IMG/VR virus record: IMGVR_UViG_3300045283_000278
Span: 1-56,150 of that record
Origin: a virus
Reading direction: 5' to 3' (one strand)
DNA: 56,150 nucleotides
The position numbers were made by a program, and so were the translations under genes. The notes below the pieces were generated by a model. It searched no databases and was not told the DNA's origin. It worked only from the letters and a program-made list of their open reading frames with translations. Shown in pieces: positions 6,132 through 42,530 of this stretch; within the stretch, counting starts at the first letter, position 1, and each line of letters starts with the position of its first letter.

Positions 6132-6207
6132 CGCCGCACGGCGCACCACACCGAAGCTGCCGCACGGCGGCCACCTTCACCCATCAAGAAAGAGAGGCGT
6201 GGTCGCC

Positions 6208-7119
6208 GTGGCGAACACCTTCATCAAGCCGACCGTCATCGCGGCGCGCGGCATCGCAACGCTCTACAACGCCATCCTCCTGGCCGGCCTCGTCTGGCGG
6301 GACTTCGACGCGGACTTCCGCGGCAAGCAGGGCGACACGATCACGATCCGCAAGCCGGCCGTGTTCACCGCCACCGAGTTCAACCGCAGCACCCGCACGA
6401 CGTCGTGGCAGGACGCGACCGAGGACTCGACGACCCTCACGCTCGACAAGCTCGCGCACGTCCCGTTCCACGTCACCGACGAGCAGATGACGCTGGAGAT
6501 CAGCGACTTCCAGCAGCAGCTGCTCAACCCGGCGATGGAGGCGCTCGCACAGAAGATCGACGCTGATCTCGCCGAGGCTGGCATCGACGCCGCCGAGGGC
6601 GCCGGAGGCGGCGGGACGGTCACCATCGCCAGCAACGACCCCAACTGGGTGTTCCGGAAGGCGCGCGAGAAGCTGCAGCGCAACAAGCTGCCGGTGACCG
6701 ACCGCTACGCGGTTCTCTCGCCGGAGGCGGAGACCTCTGCGCTGGGCGACCTGACGTTCCTGCAGGCCGACCACGCTGGCAGCACGGACGCACTCCGTGA
6801 GGCCATCATCGGCCGCGCGTTCGGGTTCGCGACCTACGGGTCGCAGACGTTCGGCTACGGCCCCGGTGACCGCGGCGAGGCCGACGGTCTCGCGTTCCAC
6901 CAGTCCGCGCTGGTGCTCGCCGCCCGCCCGCTGCAGCAGCCGCGGGGCATCCCGTCGGACCAGTACTCGGTCGCGAACTACAAGAGCCTGTCGCTGCGCG
7001 TCATCTACAGCTACGACCACGACGCCAAGCAGGACCAGGTGACCGTGGACGTCCTGTACGGCGTCAAGGCCACCCGGCCGGAGGGCTGCGTGCAGCTGAA
7101 CTTCGGCCAGGGCTCCTAA
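6208..7119 (+). CDS. Major capsid protein, P22-type coat
   Basis: The 303-residue protein starts MANTFIKPTVIA, followed by a VWRDFDADF...GDTITIRKP segment. This is the N-terminal signature of the P22 gene 5 coat family as found in actinophages (HK97 fold with extra insertion). The GTG at 6208 is preferred over the GTG at 6199, because the AGAAAGAGAGG ribosome site ends at 6197 and would be too close to the latter. The gene stands alone between a non-coding leader (6132-6207) and a strong hairpin, as expected for the most highly expressed protein. Confidence 0.9.
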   Translation: MANTFIKPTVIAARGIATLYNAILLAGLVWRDFDADFRGKQGDTITIRKPAVFTATEFNRSTRTTSWQDATEDSTTLTLDKLAHVPFHVTDEQMTLEISDFQQQLLNPAMEALAQKIDADLAEAGIDAAEGAGGGGTVTIASNDPNWVFRKAREKLQRNKLPVTDRYAVLSPEAETSALGDLTFLQADHAGSTDALREAIIGRAFGFATYGSQTFGYGPGDRGEADGLAFHQSALVLAARPLQQPRGIPSDQYSVANYKSLSLRVIYSYDHDAKQDQVTVDVLYGVKATRPEGCVQLNFGQGS

Positions 7120-8382: not shown

Positions 8383-10365
8383 ATGGCCGTCGCTGCGCGA
8401 CTGGCCCGACCGGCCTGCGGCGGCCGGAGCCGTGCGGCGAGCCTGGTAGTGGTCACGCCGCCGGACCCCGATCCACCTCCGCTGGGGATCATCGAGGTCG
8501 CCCAGGGCAAGACAGCGACCGCCTCGTCGGTTAAGCCGGCGAACAACACCGGCGTCTTCACGCCGGATAAGGCGGTCGACGGCGACCCCGCAACCCGGTT
8601 CTCGACCGCGTGGGGCTCCGACAACCAGACCTACACCATTGATCTGGGGGCGATCTATCAGGTCGTCCGCGTCGAGGTGGATTGGTACACGAGCTGGGCG
8701 ACGCAGTGGGCCGTCATGATTTCCACCAACGGCACGTCGTTCACGGAGCGCTATGGGGTCACGAGCTCCCAGTATCAGCCGTCGTGGGTGATCCCGTTTG
8801 TCGGGGTATCCGGTGAGCTGATCCCAACGTCGGTCAGGTATGTGCGGCTGAGGTTGGATACTCGGGCGGACAAGAACTTCGGGTTCTCGTTCTACGCGGT
8901 CAGGGTGTACGCGTACGACACGGTGCCGCCGGTCACGAGCCCGCCGACGAACGAAACGAAGCCGGCGATCACTGGCACCTTCCAGGACGGATCGACGCTG
9001 TCATGTAGCTCTGGGGCGTGGCGCGATGCTGGCGGGCAGCCGATCCTCAACCCGGCCGCGCTCTATCAGTGGACGGCCGACAACATTGACTTGCCGGGTG
9101 CCACCTCCCAGACGTTGCTGCTCACCTCGGCGCACGTCGGCAAGACGATCGGCTGCAAGGTCACCGTCCAGGGGGTCCCCGTCGCCGCGATAGGCGGCAA
9201 GGTCGTTCAGCCAAAGGTCGTCACGCCGCCGCCCGTCGATCCGCCGACGGTCGCCACGGCCCCGACGATCTCCGGCCCGGGCGTCGTCGGCCAGCCCTAC
9301 ACGGGCACGCTCGGCACGGCCACCAACGGCGCGACCGCGACCTCGTTCTGGCAGGAGAACGCCGGGTCGGGCTTCACCGATGTCATCCCGCTCGATACGG
9401 ACCTCACCTACGTCCCATCCGTCGCCGGGCGCTCGATCCGGCTGCGGGTCCGGTGGACGAACGCGGCCGGGTTCGTCGATGCCTTCTCCAGCCCGCTGAC
9501 ACCGGCGGCCGCGCCGCCGACCGGCCGCACATATGGGACGTTCGAATACCCCTGGAGCGCATCGTCGCCGGCGAGGCGCACCCTCGCCGAGCAGAGCGTC
9601 ACCTACTACGCCGACTCCGACGTGCGGACCACGACGATCCGGTCGCGCAGCCCCGATGTGGCCTACCAGAACTGGTCTGCGACCGCGTTCAAGGGCACCG
9701 CCTCCGATCCGGTCAGGACAATCACCGCCCCGGATGGGTCGGGGTCCTGTCACATGCCGTCGATCGCCCGCCCCCAGTCCGATACGGACGGATCGATCCT
9801 CATCGTCGACATGGTCAACCTGATCGTGCACGAGGCGTGGAGTGCAACCCAGGACAACAACGGCAACATCACCGCCCGCTCCTATCAGTCGCAGTCGCTG
9901 ACGGGCACCGGGTTCAACGGCGGGATGCCCGCCGCAGACTTCTCATATCTCGTCGGGATCATCCGCAAGTTCGAGCTCGCGTCGACCGTGGCGGAGATCG
10001 AGCACATCATCGGCATCACTCTCGCGGTCGAGATCATGGACAACGTGTTCGTGCCGCCGGCCCGGTCGATCGACGGCTACGGCGGCAACCCGTGGGGCGG
10101 CTCCATCGAGTACGGCCGCCGGTTCGGCGCCCCGAACCTCCCGACGAACCTCCAGACCCAGTCGGGTGTGCGCGGAAAGGTCGCCCGCGCGGTGATGCGC
10201 TACGGGCTGATCGTGTGGGACACGTTCTCCGCTGGTGATGGTGGGTCGAAGATGACTGTGCGTGCCGAGGACAACATCACTTCTTCGGAGGCCACGGCGA
10301 TCGACCAGGGCGTCACGGATTGCCTGCCGTACCTGCGGACCGTCCAGTCAACGATCAGCGGCTGA
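8383..10365 (+). CDS. Tail fibre with discoidin-like and Ig-like domains
   Basis: The 660-residue modular surface protein starts 3 bases after the preceding stop. Residues about 35-185 look like an F5/8 type C (discoidin/CBM32) domain: ASSVKPANNTGVFTPDKAVDGDPATRF, TYTIDLGAIYQVVRVEV and a C-terminal VRYVRLRL strand. Residues about 195-270 and 285-375 are Ig-like repeats of the actinobacterial GAT-type (SGAWRDAGG, YQW, GATSQTLLL). Residues about 430-655 form a domain shared with the fibre at 14879-16300. Discoidin domains bind glycans, so host-surface binding is the likely job. The very Ala/Arg-rich first 25 residues may mean that the true start is further in. Confidence 0.8.
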   Translation: MAVAARLARPACGGRSRAASLVVVTPPDPDPPPLGIIEVAQGKTATASSVKPANNTGVFTPDKAVDGDPATRFSTAWGSDNQTYTIDLGAIYQVVRVEVDWYTSWATQWAVMISTNGTSFTERYGVTSSQYQPSWVIPFVGVSGELIPTSVRYVRLRLDTRADKNFGFSFYAVRVYAYDTVPPVTSPPTNETKPAITGTFQDGSTLSCSSGAWRDAGGQPILNPAALYQWTADNIDLPGATSQTLLLTSAHVGKTIGCKVTVQGVPVAAIGGKVVQPKVVTPPPVDPPTVATAPTISGPGVVGQPYTGTLGTATNGATATSFWQENAGSGFTDVIPLDTDLTYVPSVAGRSIRLRVRWTNAAGFVDAFSSPLTPAAAPPTGRTYGTFEYPWSASSPARRTLAEQSVTYYADSDVRTTTIRSRSPDVAYQNWSATAFKGTASDPVRTITAPDGSGSCHMPSIARPQSDTDGSILIVDMVNLIVHEAWSATQDNNGNITARSYQSQSLTGTGFNGGMPAADFSYLVGIIRKFELASTVAEIEHIIGITLAVEIMDNVFVPPARSIDGYGGNPWGGSIEYGRRFGAPNLPTNLQTQSGVRGKVARAVMRYGLIVWDTFSAGDGGSKMTVRAEDNITSSEATAIDQGVTDCLPYLRTVQSTISG

Positions 10366-10384: not shown

Positions 10385-12349
10385 ATGCCAATTAGATTCT
10401 CCTCGGGCTTGGTGGGAAGCGCGATCGACATCGCCGGCCAGGTGGATCGCCGTCGCCTGCGGTGGAAGGGCACGGCGCCACACTGGCAAGACCCGCCGTG
10501 CGTCGACCTCCGTGACTGGGATGGCGTGGAGCCATGGAAGACATCCTTGGGCACGGTGATGACGTCGGGGCAGCCGGTGCTGTCCAACACGGTCACGCCG
10601 TTCCAGTCCAGCGACGTCGGCAAACTGGTGATCGTCAACCAGAACGTCGGGACCGATCCGAGGTACTTCGCGAAGATCGCCTCGGTCAGTAACGGCGTAG
10701 CGACGATGGTTGACCCTGCCGATGGGGTCACGCCCGCGCCGTGCCCGTCGACCACGACCAACCAGCGCATGGTCTACGGGTGGGACGAGACGGCCGCCTT
10801 GCAAGCGGCTCTCAATGCGGCGGCGGCGTTCAACGTCACCGGCCGTTGGTGCGTGCTGCCGGGCACGCACTTTGTGTCGCAGCTCATCTATCCGACCGGC
10901 CTCTGGTTGGCGGGCGACGGCTGGGGCATCCAGTACGGGTCAACCAACGGCAGCATCTCCGACGTCCAAGGCAACTCGGGCACCACGATCGCTCAAATCC
11001 CCGGATCCAACAAAGACCTCCTCAGGTTCGCCGTCAGCTACTACGACGGCACGACGCGCTTCTACGGCCCGGGTTCGATTCGTCAGGTCACGCTCCTCGG
11101 TCCCCCGGCGGTGGGCGGCAAGACCTACACCGGGGGCGGCGGGTTCGTGATGCGCGACGTGGACGGCAACGCCGTCTGCCCGCAGGACGGAGCGTTCTTC
11201 GCCGACATCCACGCCATCCAGTTCTACGACGACGGCTTCGAACTCCCGGCCGGCGGCATCCCGCTGTTCGTGGATCGCTTGCGACCGTTCTACAACGGCC
11301 GCTACGGGATCAACGTTGGGGCCGCGCCCGCGTCCGACTCTGGGGTTGGCGGTGGCAACCAGCAGTCGATGCACTTCCTGAACTGCACCGGCGACGGCAA
11401 TGGCGAAGGACTCCTGCGCATCCATGATCAGGGCAACGCCGGGAACGTGGTGATCACGAACCTGAAGTCTGAGAAGGGCACCGTCCGTCCTCTCGCCAGG
11501 GTCGCGTCGGGTGCCCAGGAGTCGGCGATCATCCTCGAGAACTGCAACTACACGCCGGTCGTGATCAACGGGGTCACGCACATCAGCTCCGGGACGAGCA
11601 ACCCGACCGACGCCCCCGGGCCCGCGATCCTGATCAAGGCCAGCGACGACCGTCGACCGCAGGTGTCGTTCTTCGGCGTTGGCGTCCGCGTCACTTCGAC
11701 GCAGACCAACGGGCTCGCGGATGCGGTCTTGCTGCGGGACTCGGTCATCGGTGTGGACATCCCTCGGTCGGTGCAGACGAAGTCGGGGCATTGGCCCCCG
11801 GACACCCTGGTGAACCCGGACGGGATGGCTCTCTCGTCGGGGGAGGCAAACATTCCCCGGTTCCAGGCGCAGACGACGGTCACGATGACCAGCCAGGCGT
11901 TGCGGCTCGGCTACTTCCAGGCGCGGAAAACGGAGCAGATCGGGAAGCTGCGGGTCCACACCGGGTCAACCCCGGCAGGCGCGACCCCGTCGCTGCTGAA
12001 GTTCTGCATCTACGAAGTCCTCTCCGATGGCAGCCTGAACCTCGTCGGTGTGACCGCAAACTCGACAGGGTCGCTGGTGGCCGCCAGCACCGGTTACACC
12101 GTCGACTTGACTGCGGCGTTCAAGAAGTACTCGGGGAAGGTGTACGCGGCCGGGCTTCTGGTTGTGACGGCTGCGACGGCACCCCAGGTGTCGGGCGCTA
12201 TTCCTCCGTCTGCTGAGGCGGCGTCGCGGACCCCTCGTTTGACGTTGGCGTTGACTGGCCAAGCGGACGTGCCGTCCTCGATCTCGGCGGCGACCGTGTC
12301 TGGTTCGACGGCGACGAACAACTTTCCGTACGTGGTCGCGCTGCCATAA
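10385..12349 (+). CDS. Tailspike-like beta-helix protein
   Basis: The 654-residue protein has an N-terminal virion-attachment part and then the usual entry to a right-handed beta-helix: DETAALQAALNAAAAF at about 139-154 (the DDT..iQ.Ai motif), followed by repeated Asn/Gly-rich coils up to about residue 470. A C-terminal beta-sandwich (about 500-654) ends with PRLTLALTGQADVP...PYVVALP. Pectate-lyase-fold spikes cut or bind capsule or cell-wall polysaccharide. I cannot assign catalytic residues by eye. The ATG at 10385 follows GAAAGG. Directly after the stop, the same frame encodes a diverged copy of its C-terminus (see 12350-12499). Confidence 0.8.
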   Translation: MPIRFSSGLVGSAIDIAGQVDRRRLRWKGTAPHWQDPPCVDLRDWDGVEPWKTSLGTVMTSGQPVLSNTVTPFQSSDVGKLVIVNQNVGTDPRYFAKIASVSNGVATMVDPADGVTPAPCPSTTTNQRMVYGWDETAALQAALNAAAAFNVTGRWCVLPGTHFVSQLIYPTGLWLAGDGWGIQYGSTNGSISDVQGNSGTTIAQIPGSNKDLLRFAVSYYDGTTRFYGPGSIRQVTLLGPPAVGGKTYTGGGGFVMRDVDGNAVCPQDGAFFADIHAIQFYDDGFELPAGGIPLFVDRLRPFYNGRYGINVGAAPASDSGVGGGNQQSMHFLNCTGDGNGEGLLRIHDQGNAGNVVITNLKSEKGTVRPLARVASGAQESAIILENCNYTPVVINGVTHISSGTSNPTDAPGPAILIKASDDRRPQVSFFGVGVRVTSTQTNGLADAVLLRDSVIGVDIPRSVQTKSGHWPPDTLVNPDGMALSSGEANIPRFQAQTTVTMTSQALRLGYFQARKTEQIGKLRVHTGSTPAGATPSLLKFCIYEVLSDGSLNLVGVTANSTGSLVAASTGYTVDLTAAFKKYSGKVYAAGLLVVTAATAPQVSGAIPPSAEAASRTPRLTLALTGQADVPSSISAATVSGSTATNNFPYVVALP

Positions 12350-12499
12350 GCCGCTGCGCAGGCCGCAGGCAGCGCGGGCCGGCCTCGACTCTCGGGATTC
12401 GTCGCGTCGCAGGCCGATCTACCGGCCGATGGTGGCACGATCTCCGGCGCGTCGGTTTCGAACACCAGCGCCGGGCCGTACGCCGTGTTCACTGCTTGA
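12350..12499 (+). pseudogene. In-frame remnant copy of the tailspike C-terminus
   Basis: After the TAA of the tailspike gene (12347-12349) the same frame stays open for 49 codons and ends at TGA 12497-12499. From its Pro-Arg-Leu onward (38 residues) it aligns without gaps with the last 38 residues of the tailspike, and both end in stop codons at the same position. I count 11 of 38 identities, including PRL, QAD-x-P and PY-x-V. It has no start codon or ribosome site. It overlaps the last 11 bases of the acyltransferase gene on the other strand. It is probably a leftover of a duplicated or replaced spike gene, or a readthrough extension. Confidence 0.55.
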
Positions 12500-14693
12500 T
12501 AGCGGCTCGGAATGCTGCGTCGAACGGGGCTGCGAGCTCTGCGCCGTATGTCTTGGTGATGTGGCTGTTGTCGAAGTAAGCGACGGTGCGGCCGATCACT
12601 ACTGGGCATGTCCGCTGTCCGCAGAACCAGCCGGTCGGGTTGATGAACCCCGCCCCGTGCGCCTTGGCGAGCTGGGCAACGGTCTGCGTGACCAGGATGC
12701 GAGCGGAATCGTAGGGCGAACTGCAATCCCCCAACTTCGAATGGCTGCGGAGTAGGCAGTCGACGGGCAACTGCTGCTCGCCGAACACGTCGCCCATGAC
12801 CACGACCCGCTTCGACGACAGCTCAAGCTTGGGAATCAGTGCCCCCAGCGCAGACGTAACCGAGGCCATGGCAGGTGGCACCCCGGGAACCTCGTTCAGG
12901 TAACGACCGGCGATGATCGTGAGATCGGGACGCAGCTTCGCGGCCTGGCCAGTCGCCCACTTGTACCAGGCGGTGCATCCGGGCTTGGGGTGATCGCCGC
13001 CCCACATCCTGATGGTGCACGAGACCTTGATGACGGGGATCACCGTCCAATGCTCGCGCCTGGCGGTGCTCATGATCGCGGGCATCCACATCTGGGCATG
13101 AGAGTCGCCGAACACCACCATCGTCCGCGACGCGGCTGTGTCACCCATCTTGCAGAGCTGGTTGGTCGTCTGCCGTTCGCCAGCGGTGCATTCGGGCGGG
13201 AGTTTGTAGATGTCTTTTGCCAGGTCGCCTGTCGCTGGTGAGGGCGTCAGGCCCGCCGGGATCACCCGATTTGCCGTCGCAGCGAGATCCGCAGCCATGA
13301 CCGACGGAAGCGGCTTTCCGGTCGCGGCGAGCTGCTCGATCAATGCCTGCTGCTGCAACCGGTAGCGTTTCTGCGCAGGCGTCTCCGGGGCAGCGGGGGT
13401 GAGAAGGCTGGGTGCTCGCGCGGCGGCGGCGGCGACCTCGCCGTTGACGGCTGACAGCACCTTTCCGTCGATCGCTTGCTGAGCAAAGATCACGACCGCG
13501 GCGACGATGACCGGTGACGCGAGCCACATCACGAGTGCGGGCTGGGTCGAGATTCGTTCGCTGCGACGGATCGGGTTCTCAAACAGGTAGTAGGTGCCAG
13601 CCGAGAGCGCGAGCGCAGCGGCAAGCAGCAGGATGTTGGTGCCGACGCTCAGGTCGCTGCCGTGCTGTTCTGCGGCGAGTGCCAGAACGGGCCAGTGCCA
13701 CAGATAGAAGGTGTAGGAGATGTCGCCGATAAACCGCATCGGCGCGATGCTGAGCAGGCGGCCGACTCCAGCGAACGGGGTCTGCGCGGGCATCCCTGCA
13801 ACGATCAGCAGCGCCGCGCCGATCGTCGGGACCAACGCGGCCGAGCCAGGGAACGGTGTCGTCGCATCGAACTCGACCGCGGCGACCACGATGGCGGCGA
13901 GACCCGCCCATCCCATCCCGACACGGATGAGTGCCGGGACCCTCGTGAGGTGGCGAGCGGTCACGGCGAGACCTGCACCGAGCGCGAGCTCCCACGCCCG
14001 CGTAAACGTCGAGAAGTACGCCACCGTGGGGCTTGTCTTCGTCTGGTGGATCGACCAGTACAGCGATACCGCGGCGATGATCGCGATGAGCACGAAGAGG
14101 CGGTCAAGTCCGCGGCCGGTCAACGGGGGGCGCGGCCGCATCCGACGGCGACGGCCGATTCGGATCAGGCCGGTCCCGAACACGACGACAGCAACGAGCG
14201 TTGGCCACACGACATAGAACTGCTCCTCGACCGCGAGGGACCAGAAGTGGCGGACCGGGGATTCGGGCTGGCCCTGCGCGAAATAGTCGGTGCCCATGTG
14301 CGCGAAGTGCACGTTGGCGCCGAACACCGATGCCCAGAGCGTGTCGGTCAGCACCTGATGGGCGCGGACGATGTTCAGCATCTGGTAGGCCGCGATTGCG
14401 GTGGCAGCGAGGGTGAGGGTCGCGGCCGGGAGTATGCGCTTTGCGCGCCGAGCGTAGAACTCGGCCAGAGAGATTCGGCTGCGTTGCGCCGCTCCGGAGA
14501 GCAGCACCCCGGTGATGAGGTAGCCGGACAGGACGAAGAACACGTCCACGCCGATGTAGCCGCCCGAAAGAAATCCGATGCCGGCGTGGTTGAGCGCGAC
14601 GAGCAGCACGGCTACGGCGCGCATCCCTTGGATGTCGCGTCGGTGCCTGGTGGATGGCAGCAGTGGTCGTCCAGCCCGCGGGTCGGCTTTCAT
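12489..14693 (-). CDS. OafA-type membrane acyltransferase with SGNH domain (moron)
   Basis: The 734-residue protein has an Acyltransferase_3 domain with about ten membrane segments. It opens with DIQGMRAVAVLLVALNHAG (catalytic-type His at about residue 36), then GVDVFFVLSGYLIT and FWSLAVEEQFYVVWP. A periplasmic C-terminal SGNH part carries VVFGDSHAQMW and a terminal FDNSHIT. Members O-acetylate surface polysaccharides, and phage versions are known for serotype conversion in lysogens. It is the only leftward gene among the tail genes. I chose the ATG at 14693 because a TACAGT hexamer lies 8 nt upstream; a GTG at 14786 would add 31 unlikely residues. Confidence 0.9.
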   Translation of the reverse strand: MKADPRAGRPLLPSTRHRRDIQGMRAVAVLLVALNHAGIGFLSGGYIGVDVFFVLSGYLITGVLLSGAAQRSRISLAEFYARRAKRILPAATLTLAATAIAAYQMLNIVRAHQVLTDTLWASVFGANVHFAHMGTDYFAQGQPESPVRHFWSLAVEEQFYVVWPTLVAVVVFGTGLIRIGRRRRMRPRPPLTGRGLDRLFVLIAIIAAVSLYWSIHQTKTSPTVAYFSTFTRAWELALGAGLAVTARHLTRVPALIRVGMGWAGLAAIVVAAVEFDATTPFPGSAALVPTIGAALLIVAGMPAQTPFAGVGRLLSIAPMRFIGDISYTFYLWHWPVLALAAEQHGSDLSVGTNILLLAAALALSAGTYYLFENPIRRSERISTQPALVMWLASPVIVAAVVIFAQQAIDGKVLSAVNGEVAAAAARAPSLLTPAAPETPAQKRYRLQQQALIEQLAATGKPLPSVMAADLAATANRVIPAGLTPSPATGDLAKDIYKLPPECTAGERQTTNQLCKMGDTAASRTMVVFGDSHAQMWMPAIMSTARREHWTVIPVIKVSCTIRMWGGDHPKPGCTAWYKWATGQAAKLRPDLTIIAGRYLNEVPGVPPAMASVTSALGALIPKLELSSKRVVVMGDVFGEQQLPVDCLLRSHSKLGDCSSPYDSARILVTQTVAQLAKAHGAGFINPTGWFCGQRTCPVVIGRTVAYFDNSHITKTYGAELAAPFDAAFRAAIKQ

Positions 14694-14701
14694 CGCGCGG
14701 G

Positions 14702-14707
14702 ACTGTA
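14702..14707 (-). promoter_or_regulatory. TAnnnT -10 element for the acyltransferase (leaderless)
   Basis: On the minus strand the hexamer TACAGT ends 8 nt before the ATG at 14693. In actinobacteria a TAnnnT at this distance marks promoters of leaderless transcripts. No clear ribosome site precedes this start, which fits. No good -35 is visible. Confidence 0.5.
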
Positions 14708-14815
14708 AAGCGCAGAGCCGCGTTCTGCTATCGACCTTGCTCTGTGTTGGACCTGCCGTACTGGTCGGTTGGACAGGACGGCACACCTGCTTTGCGTGAG
14801 GCTCCGACGGTCCCT

Positions 14816-17288: not shown

Positions 17289-17732
17289 ATGGCCTTCGCC
17301 ACCGTCGAGCAGCTCGCGCAGCGCCTCGGGCGCACCTTCACCGAGGCAGAGACCACCCAAGCCACCGCGCTGCTCGGGCTCGCGCAGCTCGCGATCGCCG
17401 CCGCATGCGACAAGGACGACACCTGGGCCGACGAGCTCGATCCCGTACCGGCGGCGCTGCAGATCACCTGCATCGAGATCGCCGTGCGGATCATGTCCAA
17501 CCCCTCCGGCGCACGGTCGCGGTCCGAGCGCCTGGGCCAGTACGAGGTCAGCGAGAGCTTCCACGCGAACTTCGACCCCGCGGCCGCCGGCATCACGCTC
17601 ACCGACCGCGAGGAGCTCCGCTGCCGCCGCGCCGTCTACGGCTCCGCCTCCGGGTCGGTGCGCGTCAAGTCCGTCACCCAGGACCTCCTCCTCGACCGCG
17701 TCCCGTTCGCGTGGTGGTTCGACGAGGCATGA
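17289..17732 (+). CDS. Head-tail connector / adaptor
   Basis: The 147-residue protein has the helical fold and layout of SPP1 gp15/HK97 gp6-type adaptors: MAFATVEQLAQRLGRTFTEAETTQATALLGLAQLAI, an internal IAVRIMSNPSGARSRSERLGQYEVS segment and a short basic C-terminus. It would bind the portal ring and start the head completion stack. The other connector genes do not follow directly, because five glycosyltransferase genes and one small gene come first. The start is preceded by TAGGAGG. Confidence 0.8.
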   Translation: MAFATVEQLAQRLGRTFTEAETTQATALLGLAQLAIAAACDKDDTWADELDPVPAALQITCIEIAVRIMSNPSGARSRSERLGQYEVSESFHANFDPAAAGITLTDREELRCRRAVYGSASGSVRVKSVTQDLLLDRVPFAWWFDEA

Positions 17733-18373
17733 GCGTCGCGATCATCGTCCCCGTCCTAGGCCGGCCACACCGCGCCGCGCCGCTCGTGCAGTCGATCACC
17801 GCAACCACACCGGCACCGCGCATCGTCTTCGTCTGTGACACCGACGACGCCGCCCAGCAACAGGCCAGCCGCGCGACCGGCGCCGAGGTCCTCATCGTCG
17901 ACGGCGGATACGCCACGAAGATCAACGCCGGCGTCCGCGCGACCAGCGAGCCGCTCGTGATGCTCGGCGCCGACGACCTCGAGTTCCAGCCCGGCTGGCT
18001 GACCGAAGCTCTGAACGCGATGACCGACGGCATCGAGGTCGTCGGGCTCAACGACCTCATCGAGCGGCCCCGCCGGCCAACGCACGCGACGCACTTCCTC
18101 CTCACGCGCGCCGCCGCCGAGCTTCCGACGATCGACGGACGTCCCGGACCCCTCTGTGAGGCCTACCACCACTCCGCCGTCGACGACGAGCTCATCGCCA
18201 CCGCTACACGACGCGGCATGTACGCCTACGCCGACCGCGCGCACGTCCGCCACCTCCACTGGATGAACGGCGCCGCGCAGGACGACGACACCTACCAGCG
18301 CGGCCGCGCACGGTTCCGCCACGACATGCGGCTCTTCTACGCCCGCTCCCGCCTCTGGAGCACCGCAGCGTGA
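17729..18373 (+). CDS. Glycosyltransferase, GT-A fold (family 2-like), copy 1
   Basis: The 214-residue protein is coupled to the adaptor gene (ATGA at 17729). The N-terminal IIVPVLGRPHRAAPLVQSI is the usual GT2 start. A metal-binding-type ADD sits at residues 81-83 in LVMLGADDLEF. A His/Trp-containing end (RHLHWMNG) follows. It would transfer a sugar from a nucleotide donor. There is no signal peptide or membrane segment, so it acts in the cytoplasm, most likely on a phage protein. Confidence 0.82.
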   Translation: MSVAIIVPVLGRPHRAAPLVQSITATTPAPRIVFVCDTDDAAQQQASRATGAEVLIVDGGYATKINAGVRATSEPLVMLGADDLEFQPGWLTEALNAMTDGIEVVGLNDLIERPRRPTHATHFLLTRAAAELPTIDGRPGPLCEAYHHSAVDDELIATATRRGMYAYADRAHVRHLHWMNGAAQDDDTYQRGRARFRHDMRLFYARSRLWSTAA

Positions 18374-18996
18374 GCATCGACGCCACCATCGCCGTCGCGA
18401 CGTTCGGCGACTCCTCCTGGGCCGACCTCGCCCAAGCGCGCGCGATTCCGTCCGCCGAGGCCCTCGGCGTCCCCGTCGTCCACGTGCATGACGAGACGCT
18501 CCACGACGCGCGCAACGCCGCCCTCGACCTGGTCGGTACCGAGTGGGTCGTGCACCTCGACGCCGACGACGAGCTCGAGCCCGGCTATCTCGACCACATG
18601 GCATGCGGGACGGCGGATCTCCGCGCGCCGGCCGTCCGCTACGTGCGCGGTCCACGACAGCACACCCCCTACGTCCCGAAGGTCGCCGGCCACACTCACG
18701 ACTGCACCGGCGATTGCATCGCGAGCGGCGCTGGCAACTGGCTGGTCGTCGGCACCATGGCCCGGACGCAACTCCTCCGTGACATCGGCGGCTGGCGGGA
18801 CTGGCCGATGTACGAGGACTTCGATCTCTGGATGCGTGCGCTGCTCACTGGCGCAACCGTCGAGGCCATTCCCAGCGCGGTCTACCGCGCCTTCGCAAGG
18901 CCCGATAGTCGCAACCGGGGGCCGTCCATGGTGGAGAAGAATCGCGTGCACTACGCCATCGTCGCCGCGAACCTCCAAGGGGCGGCAGCGGCGTGA
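18370..18996 (+). CDS. Glycosyltransferase, GT-A fold (family 2-like), copy 2
   Basis: The 208-residue protein has a GTG start overlapping the previous stop. The motif DARNAAL (about 46-52) with HLDADDELEPGY (DADD at 64-67) is the classic GT2 nucleotide-sugar and metal-binding region. A later YEDFDLWMRAL supplies the acidic base-type ED. It is clearly related in plan to the neighbouring transferases but differs strongly in sequence, so the acceptor or sugar is probably different. Confidence 0.88.
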   Translation: MSIDATIAVATFGDSSWADLAQARAIPSAEALGVPVVHVHDETLHDARNAALDLVGTEWVVHLDADDELEPGYLDHMACGTADLRAPAVRYVRGPRQHTPYVPKVAGHTHDCTGDCIASGAGNWLVVGTMARTQLLRDIGGWRDWPMYEDFDLWMRALLTGATVEAIPSAVYRAFARPDSRNRGPSMVEKNRVHYAIVAANLQGAAAA

Positions 18997-19271
18997 ACGC
19001 CGAGAACAAGGACGCCCAGCGCCAGGTGCACGAGGCCATCGGCGGCCTCCTCGACGATGGCGAGATCGCGATCTGCTGGGTGTTGACCATCGACGTCGCC
19101 GGGCCCAACGACACGCGCTACCTCGCGCACCGCGCCGGCGGGGGCCATGACGGCAACGACAACCCGATGGCGTGGACCGCGGCCGGGATGCTCCAGGCGA
19201 GCGCCGACATGGCCCGCGACCAGATGCGCCGGTTCACCGTGGAGACCGACGACGAGGACGAGGACGAGTGA
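18993..19271 (+). CDS. Small acidic-tailed protein inside the glycosyltransferase cassette
   Basis: The 92-residue protein has a GTG start overlapping the previous gene. Its middle has AHRAGGGHDGNDNPMAW and AGMLQASADMARDQ, followed by a Asp/Glu-only C-terminal tail. I have an impression of similar small proteins in many actinophages but know no function. In this cassette it could be unrelated to sugar transfer. Confidence 0.65.
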   Translation: MNAENKDAQRQVHEAIGGLLDDGEIAICWVLTIDVAGPNDTRYLAHRAGGGHDGNDNPMAWTAAGMLQASADMARDQMRRFTVETDDEDEDE

Positions 19272-19864
19272 GCGTCTGCCTGCTGGCGATCAGCGACGGG
19301 CGCCACGAGTACCACCACCAGGCCTTCCGGTCCGCGCTGCAGCACCTCCCGCGGTTCGACCATCACGTCTTCATCGACGATCCCTCACACGAGCTCGGGT
19401 TCACGGGCGCCGTGATCGAGGGGTGGCGGCAGGTCCTCGAGACCGACGCCGACTTCGTCTGGCACTTCGAGGCTGACTTCACGTTCGACCGGCCGATCCC
19501 GATTGCCGACATGGTGGGGGTGCTCACCGCCCGGCCGTACCTCACGCAGATGGCGCTCCTGCGCCAGCCGTGGAATGACGAGGAGCGCGCCGCGGGCAGC
19601 ATCTACAACCTGATCGCCGCCCAGCTCACCGCCGTCACCGACGGCAACCACCGCTGGCTCGAGCACCGCCGGCCGAACACGACAAACCCGTCGCTGTGGC
19701 CACGCTGGGTCCTCGAGCGCGGCTGGCCGAACGTCCCGCACTCCGAGGGCATCTTCGGCGGAGAGCTCATGCGCTCCGACGACACCTATCGCGCCGCCTA
19801 CTGGGGTCAGGGCGAAGAGTGGTGCGAGCACATCGGCGCGATCCGCGCAGGGAGGGGCTACTAG
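19268..19864 (+). CDS. Glycosyltransferase-like protein, copy 3
   Basis: The 198-residue protein uses the GTG at 19268, coupled to the preceding stop. WHFEADFTFDRP has an EAD (68-70) in the place of the DxD metal motif, after a GAVIEGWRQVLE helix typical of GT-A proteins. The C-terminal part carries GIFGGELMRS and EEWCEHIG, as in phage-encoded transferases. The match to GT2 is weaker than for its neighbours, so a divergent or specialised enzyme is likely. Confidence 0.75.
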   Translation: MSVCLLAISDGRHEYHHQAFRSALQHLPRFDHHVFIDDPSHELGFTGAVIEGWRQVLETDADFVWHFEADFTFDRPIPIADMVGVLTARPYLTQMALLRQPWNDEERAAGSIYNLIAAQLTAVTDGNHRWLEHRRPNTTNPSLWPRWVLERGWPNVPHSEGIFGGELMRSDDTYRAAYWGQGEEWCEHIGAIRAGRGY

Positions 19865-20674
19865 ATGGGCGAGATCTTCGGCATCACCCGTTCGTACAAC
19901 GAGGCCGACATCATCGAGTCGTCGATCCGCCGCATGTGCGCCCAGGTCGACCACGTCATCATCGGCGACAACAGCGACGACGGCACCGGCGAGATCCTCC
20001 TCGAGCTCGGCGCCAAGGGCCTCCCGATCACCGTCCTTTGGGACGACGCGCCGTCGGTCGCTCAGCGCGACGTCATGACCGCCTACGGCCACCTCGCCCG
20101 GGAGATGGGTGCCACCTGGGGCGTGTTCTTCGACATCGACGAGGTCTGGTACGCCAGCGACACCCGGATCGCCGACGCGCTCGCCGATCTCCCCGACCAC
20201 ATCCTCCTCGCGCCCGCCAGGAACCTGAACCACACGGCATCGACCGCTGATGACCCCGAGGACCCCGACCCAATCCACCGCATGGGCTGGCGCAACGCCG
20301 AGATGCTGCCCCTCGTCAAGGTCGCCTGCCGCCTCCGCGACGACTTGGCGATCGGTCACGGCAACCACAGCGCCAGCTACGCCGGCGAGCGCCACCCCGC
20401 CGCCGTGAACGGGCTGCTCGAAAGCCACCACTACCCCTATCGGTCGCCCGAGCAGTTCATCAAGCGCGTGAAGGGCGCCTGGCCGCAGCTGCGCGACAGC
20501 GGCCTCCCCGAGACCCACGGCGCGCACATGTGGGCCTACGGCCGCCACCTCGACGAGTTCGGCGAGGACGGCCTGCGGCGCTGGTTCGAGAACGGCATGC
20601 TCGCGAAGGACCCGGCGAGCAACCCCGACCTCGTATACGACCCGGCGCCGGCGTGTCCGACGTTGACGTCGTAG
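19865..20674 (+). CDS. Glycosyltransferase, GT2 family, copy 4
   Basis: The 269-residue protein starts directly after the previous stop. The N-terminal ITRSYNEADIIESSIRRM is the GT2 signature for donor binding, followed by IIGDNSDDGT and the DxD-type FFDIDEVWY (DID at 90-92). The C-terminal HYPYRSPEQFIKRV is seen in the Glyco_tranf_2_4-like group. It is soluble, so cytoplasmic modification of phage or host molecules is expected. It overlaps the next gene by 22 bases. Confidence 0.88.
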   Translation: MGEIFGITRSYNEADIIESSIRRMCAQVDHVIIGDNSDDGTGEILLELGAKGLPITVLWDDAPSVAQRDVMTAYGHLAREMGATWGVFFDIDEVWYASDTRIADALADLPDHILLAPARNLNHTASTADDPEDPDPIHRMGWRNAEMLPLVKVACRLRDDLAIGHGNHSASYAGERHPAAVNGLLESHHYPYRSPEQFIKRVKGAWPQLRDSGLPETHGAHMWAYGRHLDEFGEDGLRRWFENGMLAKDPASNPDLVYDPAPACPTLTS

Positions 20675-21348
20675 TCGTCGTTCCGTGGCGCCCGGACGAG
20701 CACCCCGCCCGCCAACGCGCCTGGGACTGGACTCGCGCTTGGTACGCCACACGCTTCCCGGGCTGGACGGTCCTGGAGGCGCTGTGCCCCCCGGGCCCGT
20801 GGATCAAGGCCGCGGCGTGCATGCCGCCGGCGCTCGAGCGCCGCGCGCGCGTCACCGTCGTCGCCGACGCCGACGTCATCTGCGACGGCCTGTCCGCCGC
20901 CGTCACCGCCGTCCTACGCGGGCAGCCATGGGCCATCCCGCACCACGCGGTGCACCGGCTCACCGCCCAGGCGACCAACCAGCTGCTTGCTGGCGACGAC
21001 CCCGCCGGCCTCCCCGTCGAGCAGGACGCCTACCGCGGCGTCACCGGCGGCGGCATCACCGTCCTCAGCATCGACGCCCTCGAGACGGTCCCCATGGACC
21101 CACGCTTCGTCGGCTGGGGCCAAGAAGACGAGGCCTGGGGCGTGGCACTGCAGACCATGCTCGGCCGGCCCTGGCGCGGCCTCGACCCGCTCTACCACCT
21201 CTGGCACCCGCCGCAACCCCGGCGGACCCGGAAGATGGGCAACCCGAAGGGCGAGGCCCTGCGCCGACGCTACGCCCTCGCCGCCCGCAGGAAGCCCGAG
21301 ATGAAGGCATTGCTCGCGGAGGTCCCATGTCTCTCTCCCTGCTCCTGA
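20653..21348 (+). CDS. Galactosyltransferase-like glycosyltransferase, copy 5
   Basis: The 231-residue protein starts at the GTG at 20653 inside the previous gene. It begins with VVVVVPWRPDEHPAR, has VVADADVICD (DAD at 72-74) and then TGGGITVLS followed by FVGWGQEDEAWGVAL. The GWGxEDE motif is the acceptor and base region of beta-1,4-galactosyltransferase-like C-terminal domains, also seen in mycobacteriophage transferases. Its last 22 bases overlap the next connector gene, showing that the cassette is tightly fitted into the late operon. Confidence 0.88.
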   Translation: MSDVDVVVVVPWRPDEHPARQRAWDWTRAWYATRFPGWTVLEALCPPGPWIKAAACMPPALERRARVTVVADADVICDGLSAAVTAVLRGQPWAIPHHAVHRLTAQATNQLLAGDDPAGLPVEQDAYRGVTGGGITVLSIDALETVPMDPRFVGWGQEDEAWGVALQTMLGRPWRGLDPLYHLWHPPQPRRTRKMGNPKGEALRRRYALAARRKPEMKALLAEVPCLSPCS

Positions 21349-21671
21349 ACCGCCCCTGCACGATCGTCGGCCAGGTCGCCGACGGCACCGTCGACGAGTA
21401 CGGCGGCGAGCTCATCGCCGAGACCCGCACCGACACCGTCTGTGAGCTGCAGCAGGCACAGCGCAGCGAGACCGACCAGGAGGTCGTCGCGACGCGCTGG
21501 ACGCTCTTCCTGCCCGCCGGCACCCAGATCGACGCCGGCGACCGCGTGATCGTCGAGACCGAGACGTTCGAGGTCGACGGCCAGCCGTGGCCTGCGCGTA
21601 ACCCGCGCACCGGCCAGGAGTCGCACATCGAAGCGACCGTCGTGCGCACCGAAGGCACCGCGGGGTCCTGA
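21327..21671 (+). CDS. Head-tail connector / stopper
   Basis: The 114-residue protein starts at the ATG at 21327; the long open frame further upstream is a shadow. A small beta-barrel pattern, LNRPCTIVGQ...DTVCELQQA...TRWTLFLPAGTQIDAGDRVIVETETFEVDG, matches the SPP1 gp16-type head closure proteins of siphoviruses. It would plug the portal channel after packaging. The position between adaptor and tail terminator fits, once the inserted transferases are set aside. Confidence 0.8.
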   Translation: MSLSLLLNRPCTIVGQVADGTVDEYGGELIAETRTDTVCELQQAQRSETDQEVVATRWTLFLPAGTQIDAGDRVIVETETFEVDGQPWPARNPRTGQESHIEATVVRTEGTAGS

Positions 21672-22457: not shown

Positions 22458-23036
22458 ATGGCATCGCAGGACGCCACCGAGCTCGTCGTTGCGGGCACCG
22501 GTGACATCTACGTCGGCCCCGTCGGGGCGACGCTTCCCACGACCGCAGTCGCCGCGCCGTCGCCGCACTTCGTGCAGCTCGGGTTCACCACCGAGGATGG
22601 CGTCACGCTCACCCGCACCCCGGAGATCCAGGACTTCGGTGCCTGGCAGTCGCGCACGCCGGTGCGTCGCGAGCTGACCAGCGAGGAGGTCACGCTCGCC
22701 TTCCAGCTCGAGCAGTGGAACGCTGAGAACTTCGCGTTCGCGTTCGGCGGCGGCGAGATCACCGACCTCGGCGGCGGCATGTACCGCTACGACTTCCTCG
22801 CCCCCGAGGACCAGCTCGCCGAGAACTCGCTGATCGCCGACTGGCGCGACGGCAGCAAGCGCTACCGGCTGTGCATCCCGCGCGGCAACGTCACGGAGAG
22901 CACGGAGACCCAGCTCGTCCGCGGCGCCCTCGCGGTGCTCCCGGTGAGCTTCAAGGCGCTCGCGCCAGACGACGCGAGCTCGCCCGCATACCTCCTGACG
23001 AACGACCCGAACTTCGGGGACCCGATCGCATCGTGA
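22458..23036 (+). CDS. Major tail tube protein
   Basis: The 192-residue protein lies directly before the frameshifting chaperone pair, the fixed place of the tail tube gene. MASQDATELVVAGTGDIYVGPVGAT is typical of actinophage tube proteins, followed by QLGFTTEDGVTLTRTPE and LAFQLEQWNAENFAFAFG. The C-terminal part, with VLPVSFKALA, forms the tube beta-barrel strand. It stacks in hexameric rings around the tape measure. The ATG follows TCAGGAGG. Confidence 0.88.
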   Translation: MASQDATELVVAGTGDIYVGPVGATLPTTAVAAPSPHFVQLGFTTEDGVTLTRTPEIQDFGAWQSRTPVRRELTSEEVTLAFQLEQWNAENFAFAFGGGEITDLGGGMYRYDFLAPEDQLAENSLIADWRDGSKRYRLCIPRGNVTESTETQLVRGALAVLPVSFKALAPDDASSPAYLLTNDPNFGDPIAS

Positions 23037-41204: not shown

Positions 41205-41533
41205 TCGCGCTGCCCCCTCATGGCCTGCCGGTGCTGCGGCCGCTGCGTCACGTTGACGCGGCGCGCAGTGGTCTGTCCCGGGTGCTCGTGGCCGACGCCG
41301 TGGCGATCGTCATTGACGGCGCGGAGAAGGCGGCCGAGGCGGCCGAGCGACGTCGGATTGAGCGTGAGGCGCGCGCCAGTCGGCCGTGGAGCCCGCCGTT
41401 TCGGTGCAATCGCTGCCACCGCTACGTGTCGAGTGCCACGTCGGCGTGCAAGGGCTGCGGGCATGTCGGGGCGACCTGCGACGAGGGTCAGCGGACCAGC
41501 TACGCCCGAGCCCATCGGAGGCATGCCGCATGA
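41201..41533 (+). CDS. Zinc-ribbon protein, 110 residues
   Basis: A helical N-terminus is followed by a four-Cys ribbon: FRCNRCHRY and SACKGCGHVG, with a further CDEG. It is coupled at both ends (ATGA). Zinc-ribbon proteins of this size are frequent in actinophage early operons. No specific function. Confidence 0.7.
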   Translation: MIALPPHGLPVLRPLRHVDAARSGLSRVLVADAVAIVIDGAEKAAEAAERRRIEREARASRPWSPPFRCNRCHRYVSSATSACKGCGHVGATCDEGQRTSYARAHRRHAA

Positions 41534-41847
41534 GTCAGCGTGGCCACGCCCGAGAGCGCGCTGTCGTCGCCCATCTGCGAGAGCAGGACTGGATCGCCTT
41601 CCGCGCCCCCGCCAGCCTCGGCGTCGCCGACGTCGTCGCGCTGCGCGCCGGGTCAATCCCGCGACTGGTCGAAGTGAAATCGACCGCGCAGGGGCCATAC
41701 GAGCACTTCGGTCCCGCCGACCGCCAGAAGCTTGCGTCGGCCGCTTCGATGGCCGGCGCGTCGGCGTGGCTGGTGTGGTGGCCGCCGAGAGCGTCGATGC
41801 GCTGGATCGCCGAGTCCGAGTGGCCGGCCGTGAGGGCCGCGGCATGA
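41530..41847 (+). CDS. Hjc-like Holliday junction resolvase (PD-(D/E)XK)
   Basis: The 105-residue protein starts with SQRGHARERAVVAHLRE (the conserved Glu/Arg helix), has ASLGVADVVALRAG (Asp) and PRLVEVKST (Glu-x-Lys), then FGPADRQKL. This is the complete motif order of archaeal-type Hjc resolvases and related VSR-like nucleases. It would cut four-way junctions made during recombination or replication. It starts in an ATGA overlap. Confidence 0.85.
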   Translation: MSQRGHARERAVVAHLREQDWIAFRAPASLGVADVVALRAGSIPRLVEVKSTAQGPYEHFGPADRQKLASAASMAGASAWLVWWPPRASMRWIAESEWPAVRAAA

Positions 41848-42530
41848 GGGGCGTTGCGGCATCCGAGGAGACCCGTGCATTGGCCCGAACGCTCCATGCC
41901 GAGGGTGTGTCGCCATTGGAGATCTCCCGGCGGCTGGGCTACGCCAGAGCAACGATCTACCAGTGGTTGGACCCGGAGCACATGAGCAAGCAGAAGGTGC
42001 GTCGGCTGCGGTATTCGCAGCCGTGTGTGGATTGCGGCAAGGCGACGGGCGGCTCCGGAGGTTTCGCTGCCCCTGCCCTGCGATGCGCACCCTGCCAGCG
42101 GCGGTGGCAGCGGGAGAACGCGATCTGGACCCGGGAGACTGTGATCACCGCGATCCAGGCATGGGCCGATGAGCATGGCGGCGTCCCACCGGTCGCAGCC
42201 GATTGGAATCCGGCGATAGCACGCCGCCTCGGTAAGCCCGAGAAGGCCGACAAGTTCTATGAGGACGACGCGTGGCCGACTGTCGAAAGCGTGCAGAAAG
42301 TTTTCGGGTCGTGGAACCAGGCGATTCGGGCCGCGGGGTTTGCGCCGAGGCGCCCCGGTCACTACGGCCGCGAAGGTGAGGACCCCACCGTGGTCCAACA
42401 CACCGTTGACCTGTACGAGCAAGGTCTGTCCCAACGAGAGATCGCCGAGTTGCTGGGCATCAGCAAGGCCGGCGTGCGATATCGGCTGGCTCGCGGGCGA
42501 GGGAAGCGATCGACCGGGGCCGCCGCATGA
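41844..42530 (+). CDS. Multi-HTH DNA-binding protein with zinc finger
   Basis: The 228-residue protein has an N-terminal HTH (VSPLEISRRLGYARATIYQWL), a zinc finger (CVDCGK and RCAPCQRRW) and two SANT/homeodomain-like modules (VITAIQAWADEHGGVPPVAADW and VQKVFGSWNQAIRAAGF). A C-terminal HTH (GLSQREIAELLGISKAGVRYRLARG) follows. The set resembles DNA-binding modules seen in homing-nuclease-linked proteins, but no nuclease centre is present. It may be a regulator or the directionality factor; both are unproven. Confidence 0.75.
   Translation: MRGVAASEETRALARTLHAEGVSPLEISRRLGYARATIYQWLDPEHMSKQKVRRLRYSQPCVDCGKATGGSGGFAAPALRCAPCQRRWQRENAIWTRETVITAIQAWADEHGGVPPVAADWNPAIARRLGKPEKADKFYEDDAWPTVESVQKVFGSWNQAIRAAGFAPRRPGHYGREGEDPTVVQHTVDLYEQGLSQREIAELLGISKAGVRYRLARGRGKRSTGAAA

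What the first reader, a model, noticed from the sequence alone, without database searches (positions are those of the whole stretch)
17729..21348. Five glycosyltransferases inserted between head-tail connector genes
Seen: five coupled GT-A-type genes plus one small gene sit between the adaptor (17289-17732) and stopper (21327-21671), two genes normally adjacent. The last transferase overlaps the stopper by 22 bases, so the cassette is fully built into the late operon. The catalytic motifs differ (ADD, DADD, EAD, DID, DAD with GWGQEDE), which suggests different sugars or steps. Known: some actinophages glycosylate their capsid and tail proteins. Inferred: this phage makes a multi-step glycan on virion proteins, timed with particle assembly. 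The two tandem Ig-like proteins and the fibres just upstream are possible acceptors.
Basis: partly seen in the sequence, partly recalled or inferred. Interest (0 to 1): 0.8.

Follow-up and report, generated by a model that had tools for sequence, protein, structure and literature searches.

The report
Sugar-coating gene cassette in phage
This virus of (probably actinobacterial) bacteria carries five sugar-transfer genes inside its particle-building gene block; the same five genes in the same order recur in dozens of other uncultured phages, and comparison points to the very last amino acid, a serine, of the shell and tail-tube proteins as the place where the sugar is attached.

Summary
Five glycosyltransferase (GT) genes plus a 92-aa orphan fill 17729-21348, between head-tail adaptor and stopper, coupled by 4- and 22-base overlaps. 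It is not an oddity of one phage: in all 58 distinct viral contigs carrying all five families on one strand the order is GT1-GT2-GT3-GT4-GT5. Where flanks are readable the cassette lies Ad1|Hc1 (28 contigs), before Ad1 (8) or after Hc1 (7); many versions add methyltransferases, epimerases or sulfotransferases. GT5 is homologous to GTs of Che8 and of a Corndog-group phage; Che8 and Corndog have glycosylated virions (PMC12363180).

The major capsid protein ends in Ser in 22 of 24 cassette phages and the tail-tube protein in 33 of 34, against 0/14 and 1/14 in complete GT-free phages and 0/40 portals of the same phages. Glycans at these two C-termini are reported for mycobacteriophages (PMC12619734). 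Best reading: a cassette that O-glycosylates the C-terminal Ser of capsid and tail-tube subunits. Known kind of function, new conserved cassette, testable signature; chemistry unproven.

The parts
17289..17732 (+). head-tail adaptor Ad1, upstream border of the cassette
   Evidence: phrog_137 8.8e-18
17729..18373 (+). GT1, 214 aa, GT-A family 2 glycosyltransferase, ADD motif; phage-enriched family
   Evidence: PF00535 28.4 bits, cut-off 23.3; 186 relatives in viral contigs, 4 in 84,980 genomes; A81-D83 and ~30 other positions conserved in 100 homologs
18370..18996 (+). GT2, 208 aa, family 2 glycosyltransferase, DADD and ED motifs
   Evidence: PF13632 3.8e-11; D62-A-D-D65 and E147 D148 (profile numbering) conserved in 79 homologs
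18993..19271 (+). 92-aa acidic orphan protein, translationally coupled, role unknown
   Evidence: coding GC pattern 0.71/0.43/0.97; no homolog
19268..19864 (+). GT3, 198 aa, GT-A glycosyltransferase with ExD motif
   Evidence: phrog_3047 galactosyl transferase 2e-8; AlphaFold pLDDT 95.1, Foldseek best SpsA 3.2e-6
19865..20674 (+). GT4, 269 aa, family 2 glycosyltransferase, FDxDE motif; nearest solved sequences are protein-modifying GTs; one candidate for the first (protein-linking) step
   Evidence: PF13704 3e-7; GmaR flagellin GlcNAc transferase 1.7e-9, SunS 1.9e-4
20653..21348 (+). GT5, 231 aa, beta4GalT/GalNAcT-like GT-A fold, DxD and WGxED motifs; homolog of Che8 gp109 and Firecracker gp35
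   Evidence: AlphaFold pLDDT 95.7; VIA Z 16.9 to B4GalT1, 14.2 to GalNAc-T2; 75.9 bits to Che8 gp109, 91.3 to Firecracker gp35
21327..21671 (+). head closure / stopper Hc1, downstream border
   Evidence: phrog_501 5.7e-14
6199..7119 (+). major capsid protein, ends ...NFGQGS; predicted acceptor (Ser codon 7114-7116)
   Evidence: phrog_283 9.4e-65; C-terminal Ser in 22/24 cassette phages, 0/14 GT-free
22458..23036 (+). tail-tube (major tail) protein, ends ...FGDPIAS; predicted acceptor (Ser codon 23031-23033)
   Evidence: PF25681 Phage_TTP_17 2.3e-36; C-terminal Ser in 33/34 cassette phages, 1/14 GT-free

Best explanation
The cassette makes soluble, cytoplasmic glycosyltransferases that build a short multi-sugar O-glycan on newly made virion proteins during late gene expression. 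Most likely acceptors are the C-terminal serines of the major capsid protein (...GQGS) and of the tail-tube protein (...PIAS). One enzyme (GT4, by kinship to the flagellin-modifying GmaR, or GT5, by kinship to polypeptide-GalNAc-transferase-like enzymes) sets the first sugar; the others extend the chain with host nucleotide sugars; in many relatives methyltransferases, epimerases or sulfotransferases tailor it. The coat would alter the particle surface (shielding, stability or adsorption). Shown: gene order, families, folds, conservation, C-terminal signature. Inferred: activity, sugar identity, order of steps, acceptors, benefit.
For: Same order in 58 of 58 contigs with all five on one strand. 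Location in the head/connector gene block in three neighbouring slots, other cassettes beside portal/protease/head-morphogenesis genes. GT5 homologous to Che8 gp109, Firecracker gp35 and prophage GD91-2 GTs; Che8 gp110 and Corndog gp38 are described as essential for capsid glycosylation (PMC12363180); Firecracker has O-methyltransferase and GTs between portal and protease. Extra genes in cassettes: at least 18 of 62 SAM methyltransferases, 6 NAD epimerases, 2 sulfotransferases. No transmembrane segment. C-terminal Ser: MCP 22/24, MTP 33/34 in cassette phages; TerL 1/33, portal 0/40, protease 2/43, scaffold 2/26; 14 complete phages without any GT hit: MCP 0/14, MTP 1/14; Fisher p 1e-8 and 1e-9, although MCP/MTP are otherwise only ~30% identical. 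GT-bearing Che8, Firecracker, Volt and (fetched afterwards as a check) Neville have Ser at both ends. Glycans at the C-termini of capsid and tail-tube subunits of mycobacteriophages: PMC12619734.
Against: No mass spectrometry, no enzyme assay. Related phages are not independent, so p-values are optimistic; the GT-free set is 14 phages. Kromp has a PF00535 hit in a 556-aa frame and no C-terminal Ser. GX15bay carries GT2-GT3-GT4 (no GT5) and none of the 12 proteins read after its portal ends in Ser, though its capsid protein was not identified. phi7917 has a Ser-ending MTP without GT. Hc1 also ends in Ser in 19/43, mostly where its stop overlaps the next start (14 of 19), so a weak constraint of that kind exists; it does not apply to MCP (0 of 22 overlap). 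GmaR/SunS similarity covers only the N-terminal ~110 residues.
Confidence: 0.8

Rival explanations
1. The cassette glycosylates virion proteins, but mainly the tail fibres, spike or Ig-like proteins encoded just upstream.
For: These genes lie between MCP and Ad1 in the window and some relatives (L045, L047, L136: gaps 4-7 kb); g8 has a galactose-binding-like F5/8C domain.
Against: 13 of 20 measurable cassette phages have MCP and Ad1 less than 210 b apart, without such genes. None of the window's g7-g11 ends in Ser.
Confidence: 0.07
2. The enzymes modify a host surface polymer (lysogenic conversion or superinfection exclusion).
For: The phage is probably temperate (serine recombinase) and carries an AT3-SGNH O-acyltransferase of the host-surface-modifying type at 12489-14786 (-). 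GT2 profile weakly matches TagF.
Against: The five GTs are soluble, lie in the late structural operon of many unrelated phages, and no lipid-carrier or flippase gene was seen among the ORFs scanned. GT5 kin act in virion-glycosylating phages. The TagF match covers only 49 residues around DxD.
Confidence: 0.06
3. The GTs glycosylate hypermodified bases of phage DNA.
For: Phage GTs often do this (PMC12619734).
Against: No DNA cytosine methylase (PF00145) or thymidylate-synthase-type hydroxymethylase (PF00303) in the record; TET search (PF12851) negative but its control did not ring. Location is with head genes, not replication genes; does not explain the C-terminal Ser association.
Confidence: 0.04

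Closest known systems
Virion glycosylation of mycobacteriophages Che8 and Corndog (Freeman et al. 2023, Cell Host Microbe; not held, known here through PMC12363180, PMC11256854, PMC12619734)
   Same: Phage-encoded GTs; GT5 homologous to Che8 gp109 and Firecracker (Corndog group) gp35; Firecracker's GTs and O-methyltransferase also sit in the head gene block; MCP and MTP of Che8 and Firecracker also end in Ser.
   Different: Five GTs in a fixed order instead of two or three; GT1, GT2 and GT4 have no clear counterpart there (Che8 gp108 matches GT2 only weakly, 27.5 bits); located between adaptor and stopper.
Caudovirales GX15bay (MK557849) GT block
   Same: GT2-GT3-GT4 orthologs in the same order, with a methyltransferase; only deposited phage matching GT2 and GT4.
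   Different: Lies upstream of the terminase, no GT5, GT1 at best a weak match; no C-terminal Ser found.
prophiGD91-2 GT/methyltransferase block (MW584188)
   Same: Two GT5 homologs and two SAM methyltransferases; MCP ends in SGS.
   Different: Lies upstream of the terminase; adaptor and stopper adjacent; GT1, GT3 and GT4 not clearly present.
GmaR (Listeria flagellin GlcNAc transferase) and SunS (SP-beta prophage peptide S-glycosyltransferase)
   Same: Closest solved sequences to GT4; both glycosylate proteins or peptides (PMC9638930; SunS from own knowledge).
   Different: Similarity limited to the N-terminal half; different acceptors and extra domains.

Membership tests
Phage virion glycosylation system (Che8/Corndog type) | phage-encoded GTs homologous to those of glycosylated phages | tested here: met
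   GT5 profile: Che8 gp109 75.9 bits, Firecracker gp35 91.3 bits; independent whole-record search
Phage virion glycosylation system (Che8/Corndog type) | acceptor site at the C-termini of capsid and tail-tube proteins | tested here: inconclusive
   Sequence signature (C-terminal Ser on both) present and associated with GTs; the glycan itself was not seen
Phage virion glycosylation system (Che8/Corndog type) | O-linked glycan on purified virions, lost when the GT gene is lost | not testable with these tools
   needs mass spectrometry and mutants
GT-A / family 2 glycosyltransferases | Pfam family match over cut-off (GT1, GT2, GT4) | tested here: met
   GT1, GT2, GT4 over cut-off; GT3 and GT5 not
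GT-A / family 2 glycosyltransferases | GT-A fold and conserved acidic metal-binding motif in GT3 and GT5 | tested here: met
beta-1,4-galactosyltransferase (GT7) | fold and WGxED motif of GT7 in GT5 | tested here: inconclusive
   Z 16.9 to B4GalT1 and motif present, but PF02709 below cut-off (0.038) and heparosan synthase scores equally
Phage DNA hypermodification | base-modifying enzyme (C5 methylase or hydroxymethylase) in the genome | tested here: not met
   PF00145 and PF00303 absent, controls rang; record may be incomplete
Serotype-conversion gtr-type cassette | membrane-bound GT / flippase | tested here: not met
   no hydrophobic 19-residue window above 1.5 in any cassette protein

The most novel reading that the evidence does not exclude
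[quoted passage not shown] That would make virion glycosylation far commoner than isolated phages suggest.
Probability: 0.6. Interest if true: 0.8.

Novelty: new variant of a known kind. Interest (0 to 1): 0.7.

Why it matters
Virion glycosylation has been shown in a few mycobacteriophages only. A conserved five-enzyme cassette in dozens of distinct viral contigs, nearly unseen among 50,697 deposited phages, suggests it is common in nature. The C-terminal Ser signature gives a simple prediction of which phages glycosylate which proteins, directly testable by mass spectrometry, and proposes a minimal acceptor (the last residue) that could serve as a glycosylation tag.

Tried and rejected
Megablast of the window region in deposited phages: no match. 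Stopper as viral-contig query: no relatives. Small 92-aa gene: no homologs, left unexplained. Global S/T richness of MCP/MTP as an acceptor sign: nothing unusual, but this showed the C-terminal Ser. C-terminal Ser in Hc1, Ad1, TT: raised (19/43, 12/46, 13/41); for Hc1 and Ad1 mostly tied to overlapping stop/start codons, so not claimed as acceptors. Corndog and Myrna records are not in the collection under the accessions tried; Firecracker was used instead. Freeman 2023 itself is not held; its content is cited second-hand. GT1 profile found no solved relative. TET search uninformative. No tRNA (bar one likely spurious call) or composition break was found at the cassette borders, so how it moves between slots is unknown.

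Full report
What is in the window. The record is a 56,150-b viral contig from IMG/VR with a head-to-tail late operon, a serine recombinase and high GC. Five GT genes and one small gene occupy 17729-21348 between adaptor Ad1 and stopper Hc1, exactly as described, with 4-base and 22-base overlaps. Three GTs exceed Pfam cut-offs; GT3 and GT5 do not, but their models (pLDDT 95) are GT-A folds: GT5 like beta-1,4-galactosyltransferase, heparosan/chondroitin synthases and polypeptide GalNAc transferases, GT3 like SpsA and other GT-A enzymes. The acidic motifs are conserved over 76-100 homologs each.

A conserved cassette. Searching viral contigs with GT5, GT1 and GT4, with the other loci fetched, gave 138 distinct loci. 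All 58 contigs with five families on one strand show the order GT1-GT2-GT3-GT4-GT5; shorter sets keep it too, with one contig having a divergent GT5 and one locus simply read in reverse. GT1 has 186 relatives in viral contigs but 4 in 84,980 genomes, one of them a Parafrankia prophage (the genome scan used one pattern, the viral scan two, so the ratio is approximate). Among 50,697 deposited phages GT2 and GT4 match only GX15bay. Genes inserted within cassettes, mostly between GT3 and GT4 or GT4 and GT5, are SAM methyltransferases (18 of 62 match Methyltransf_23), epimerases, sulfotransferases and further GTs, which is what a tailored oligosaccharide needs.

Location. Of 82 contigs with at least three cassette GTs, 43 could be placed: Ad1|Hc1 28, before Ad1 8, after Hc1 7. 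In the latter two groups Ad1 and Hc1 are neighbours, as in 14 annotated phages without this insert. On a concatenated GT tree the slot changes at least 6 times, fewer than with shuffled labels (mean 13.8, minimum 11 of 200), so position is mostly inherited but has shifted. For cassettes with no recognised connector gene, PHROG scans of the upstream neighbours gave portal, protease and head-morphogenesis families.

Link to proven virion glycosylation. GT5 is homologous to Che8 gp109 and Firecracker gp35 (confirmed on whole records). In Firecracker an O-methyltransferase and GTs lie between portal and capsid protease. PMC12363180 reports that Che8 gp110 and Corndog gp38 are essential for capsid glycosylation and that capsid and tail-tube proteins are modified; PMC12619734 states that the glycans are at the C-termini. 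GT4's nearest solved sequences are GmaR, which puts GlcNAc on flagellin, and SunS.

The acceptor. Comparing C-termini: MCP ends in Ser in 22/24 cassette phages (20 as GS/AS) and the tail-tube protein in 33/34, whereas TerL, portal, protease and scaffold do so in 1/33, 0/40, 2/43 and 2/26. For controls I fetched complete phages with tail-tube homologs and searched whole records for PF00535 and the GT5 profile. Fourteen without hits: MCP 0/14, tail tube 1/14. Phages with GTs: Che8 (KTGS/SDGS), Firecracker (LVGS/KGDS), GD91-2 (SSGS, MCP only) and Volt, which was picked blind as a control and turned out to carry a GT (YAGS/EPAS). Neville, fetched afterwards because it has a GT3 homolog, ends in DPS and AGS. 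Exceptions: Kromp (PF00535 hit, no Ser) and GX15bay (no Ser seen, capsid not identified). MCP stops never overlap a downstream start, so the Ser is not a by-product of gene overlap. The window's MCP ends GQGS and tail tube PIAS; its fibres and Ig-like proteins do not end in Ser. (The window's Hc1 also ends in GS, at an overlapping stop; not claimed as an acceptor.)

Caveats. The C-terminal pattern was found while looking through the data, then tested on controls; phages share ancestry; the control set is small. Nothing here shows enzymatic activity, sugar identity or benefit. The small gene is unexplained.

Verdict.

Noticed in passing
window 12489-14786 (-): Acyltransferase-3 plus SGNH O-acyltransferase (PF01757 4.7e-31, PF19040 6.9e-27) on the opposite strand inside the late operon; looks like a lysogenic-conversion gene for a host surface glycan.
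   Followed up: partly
window 18993-19271: 92-aa acidic orphan, coupled to GT2 and GT3, no homolog in the loci then held or in deposited phages.
   Followed up: yes
window 8383-10365: Putative minor structural protein with an N-terminal F5/8 type C (galactose-binding-like) domain, between capsid and adaptor genes.
   Followed up: no
window 10762-10850: ARAGORN tRNA-Ala(tgc) call lies inside the long ORF 10385-12349, probably spurious.
   Followed up: no
window 41220-42530: 436-aa frame with HNH-associated repeat and sigma-70 region 4-like helix-turn-helix matches.
   Followed up: no
L002, L003, L005, L009, L024, L030: A different GT plus methyltransferase block with a GT5 homolog sits directly before Ad1 in other phages; the tail-tube proteins read there also end in Ser.
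   Followed up: partly
L232:13040-14260: Gene next to the tail-tube gene of Gordonia phage Neville also ends in Ser (LAYS), a possible further acceptor.
   Followed up: no
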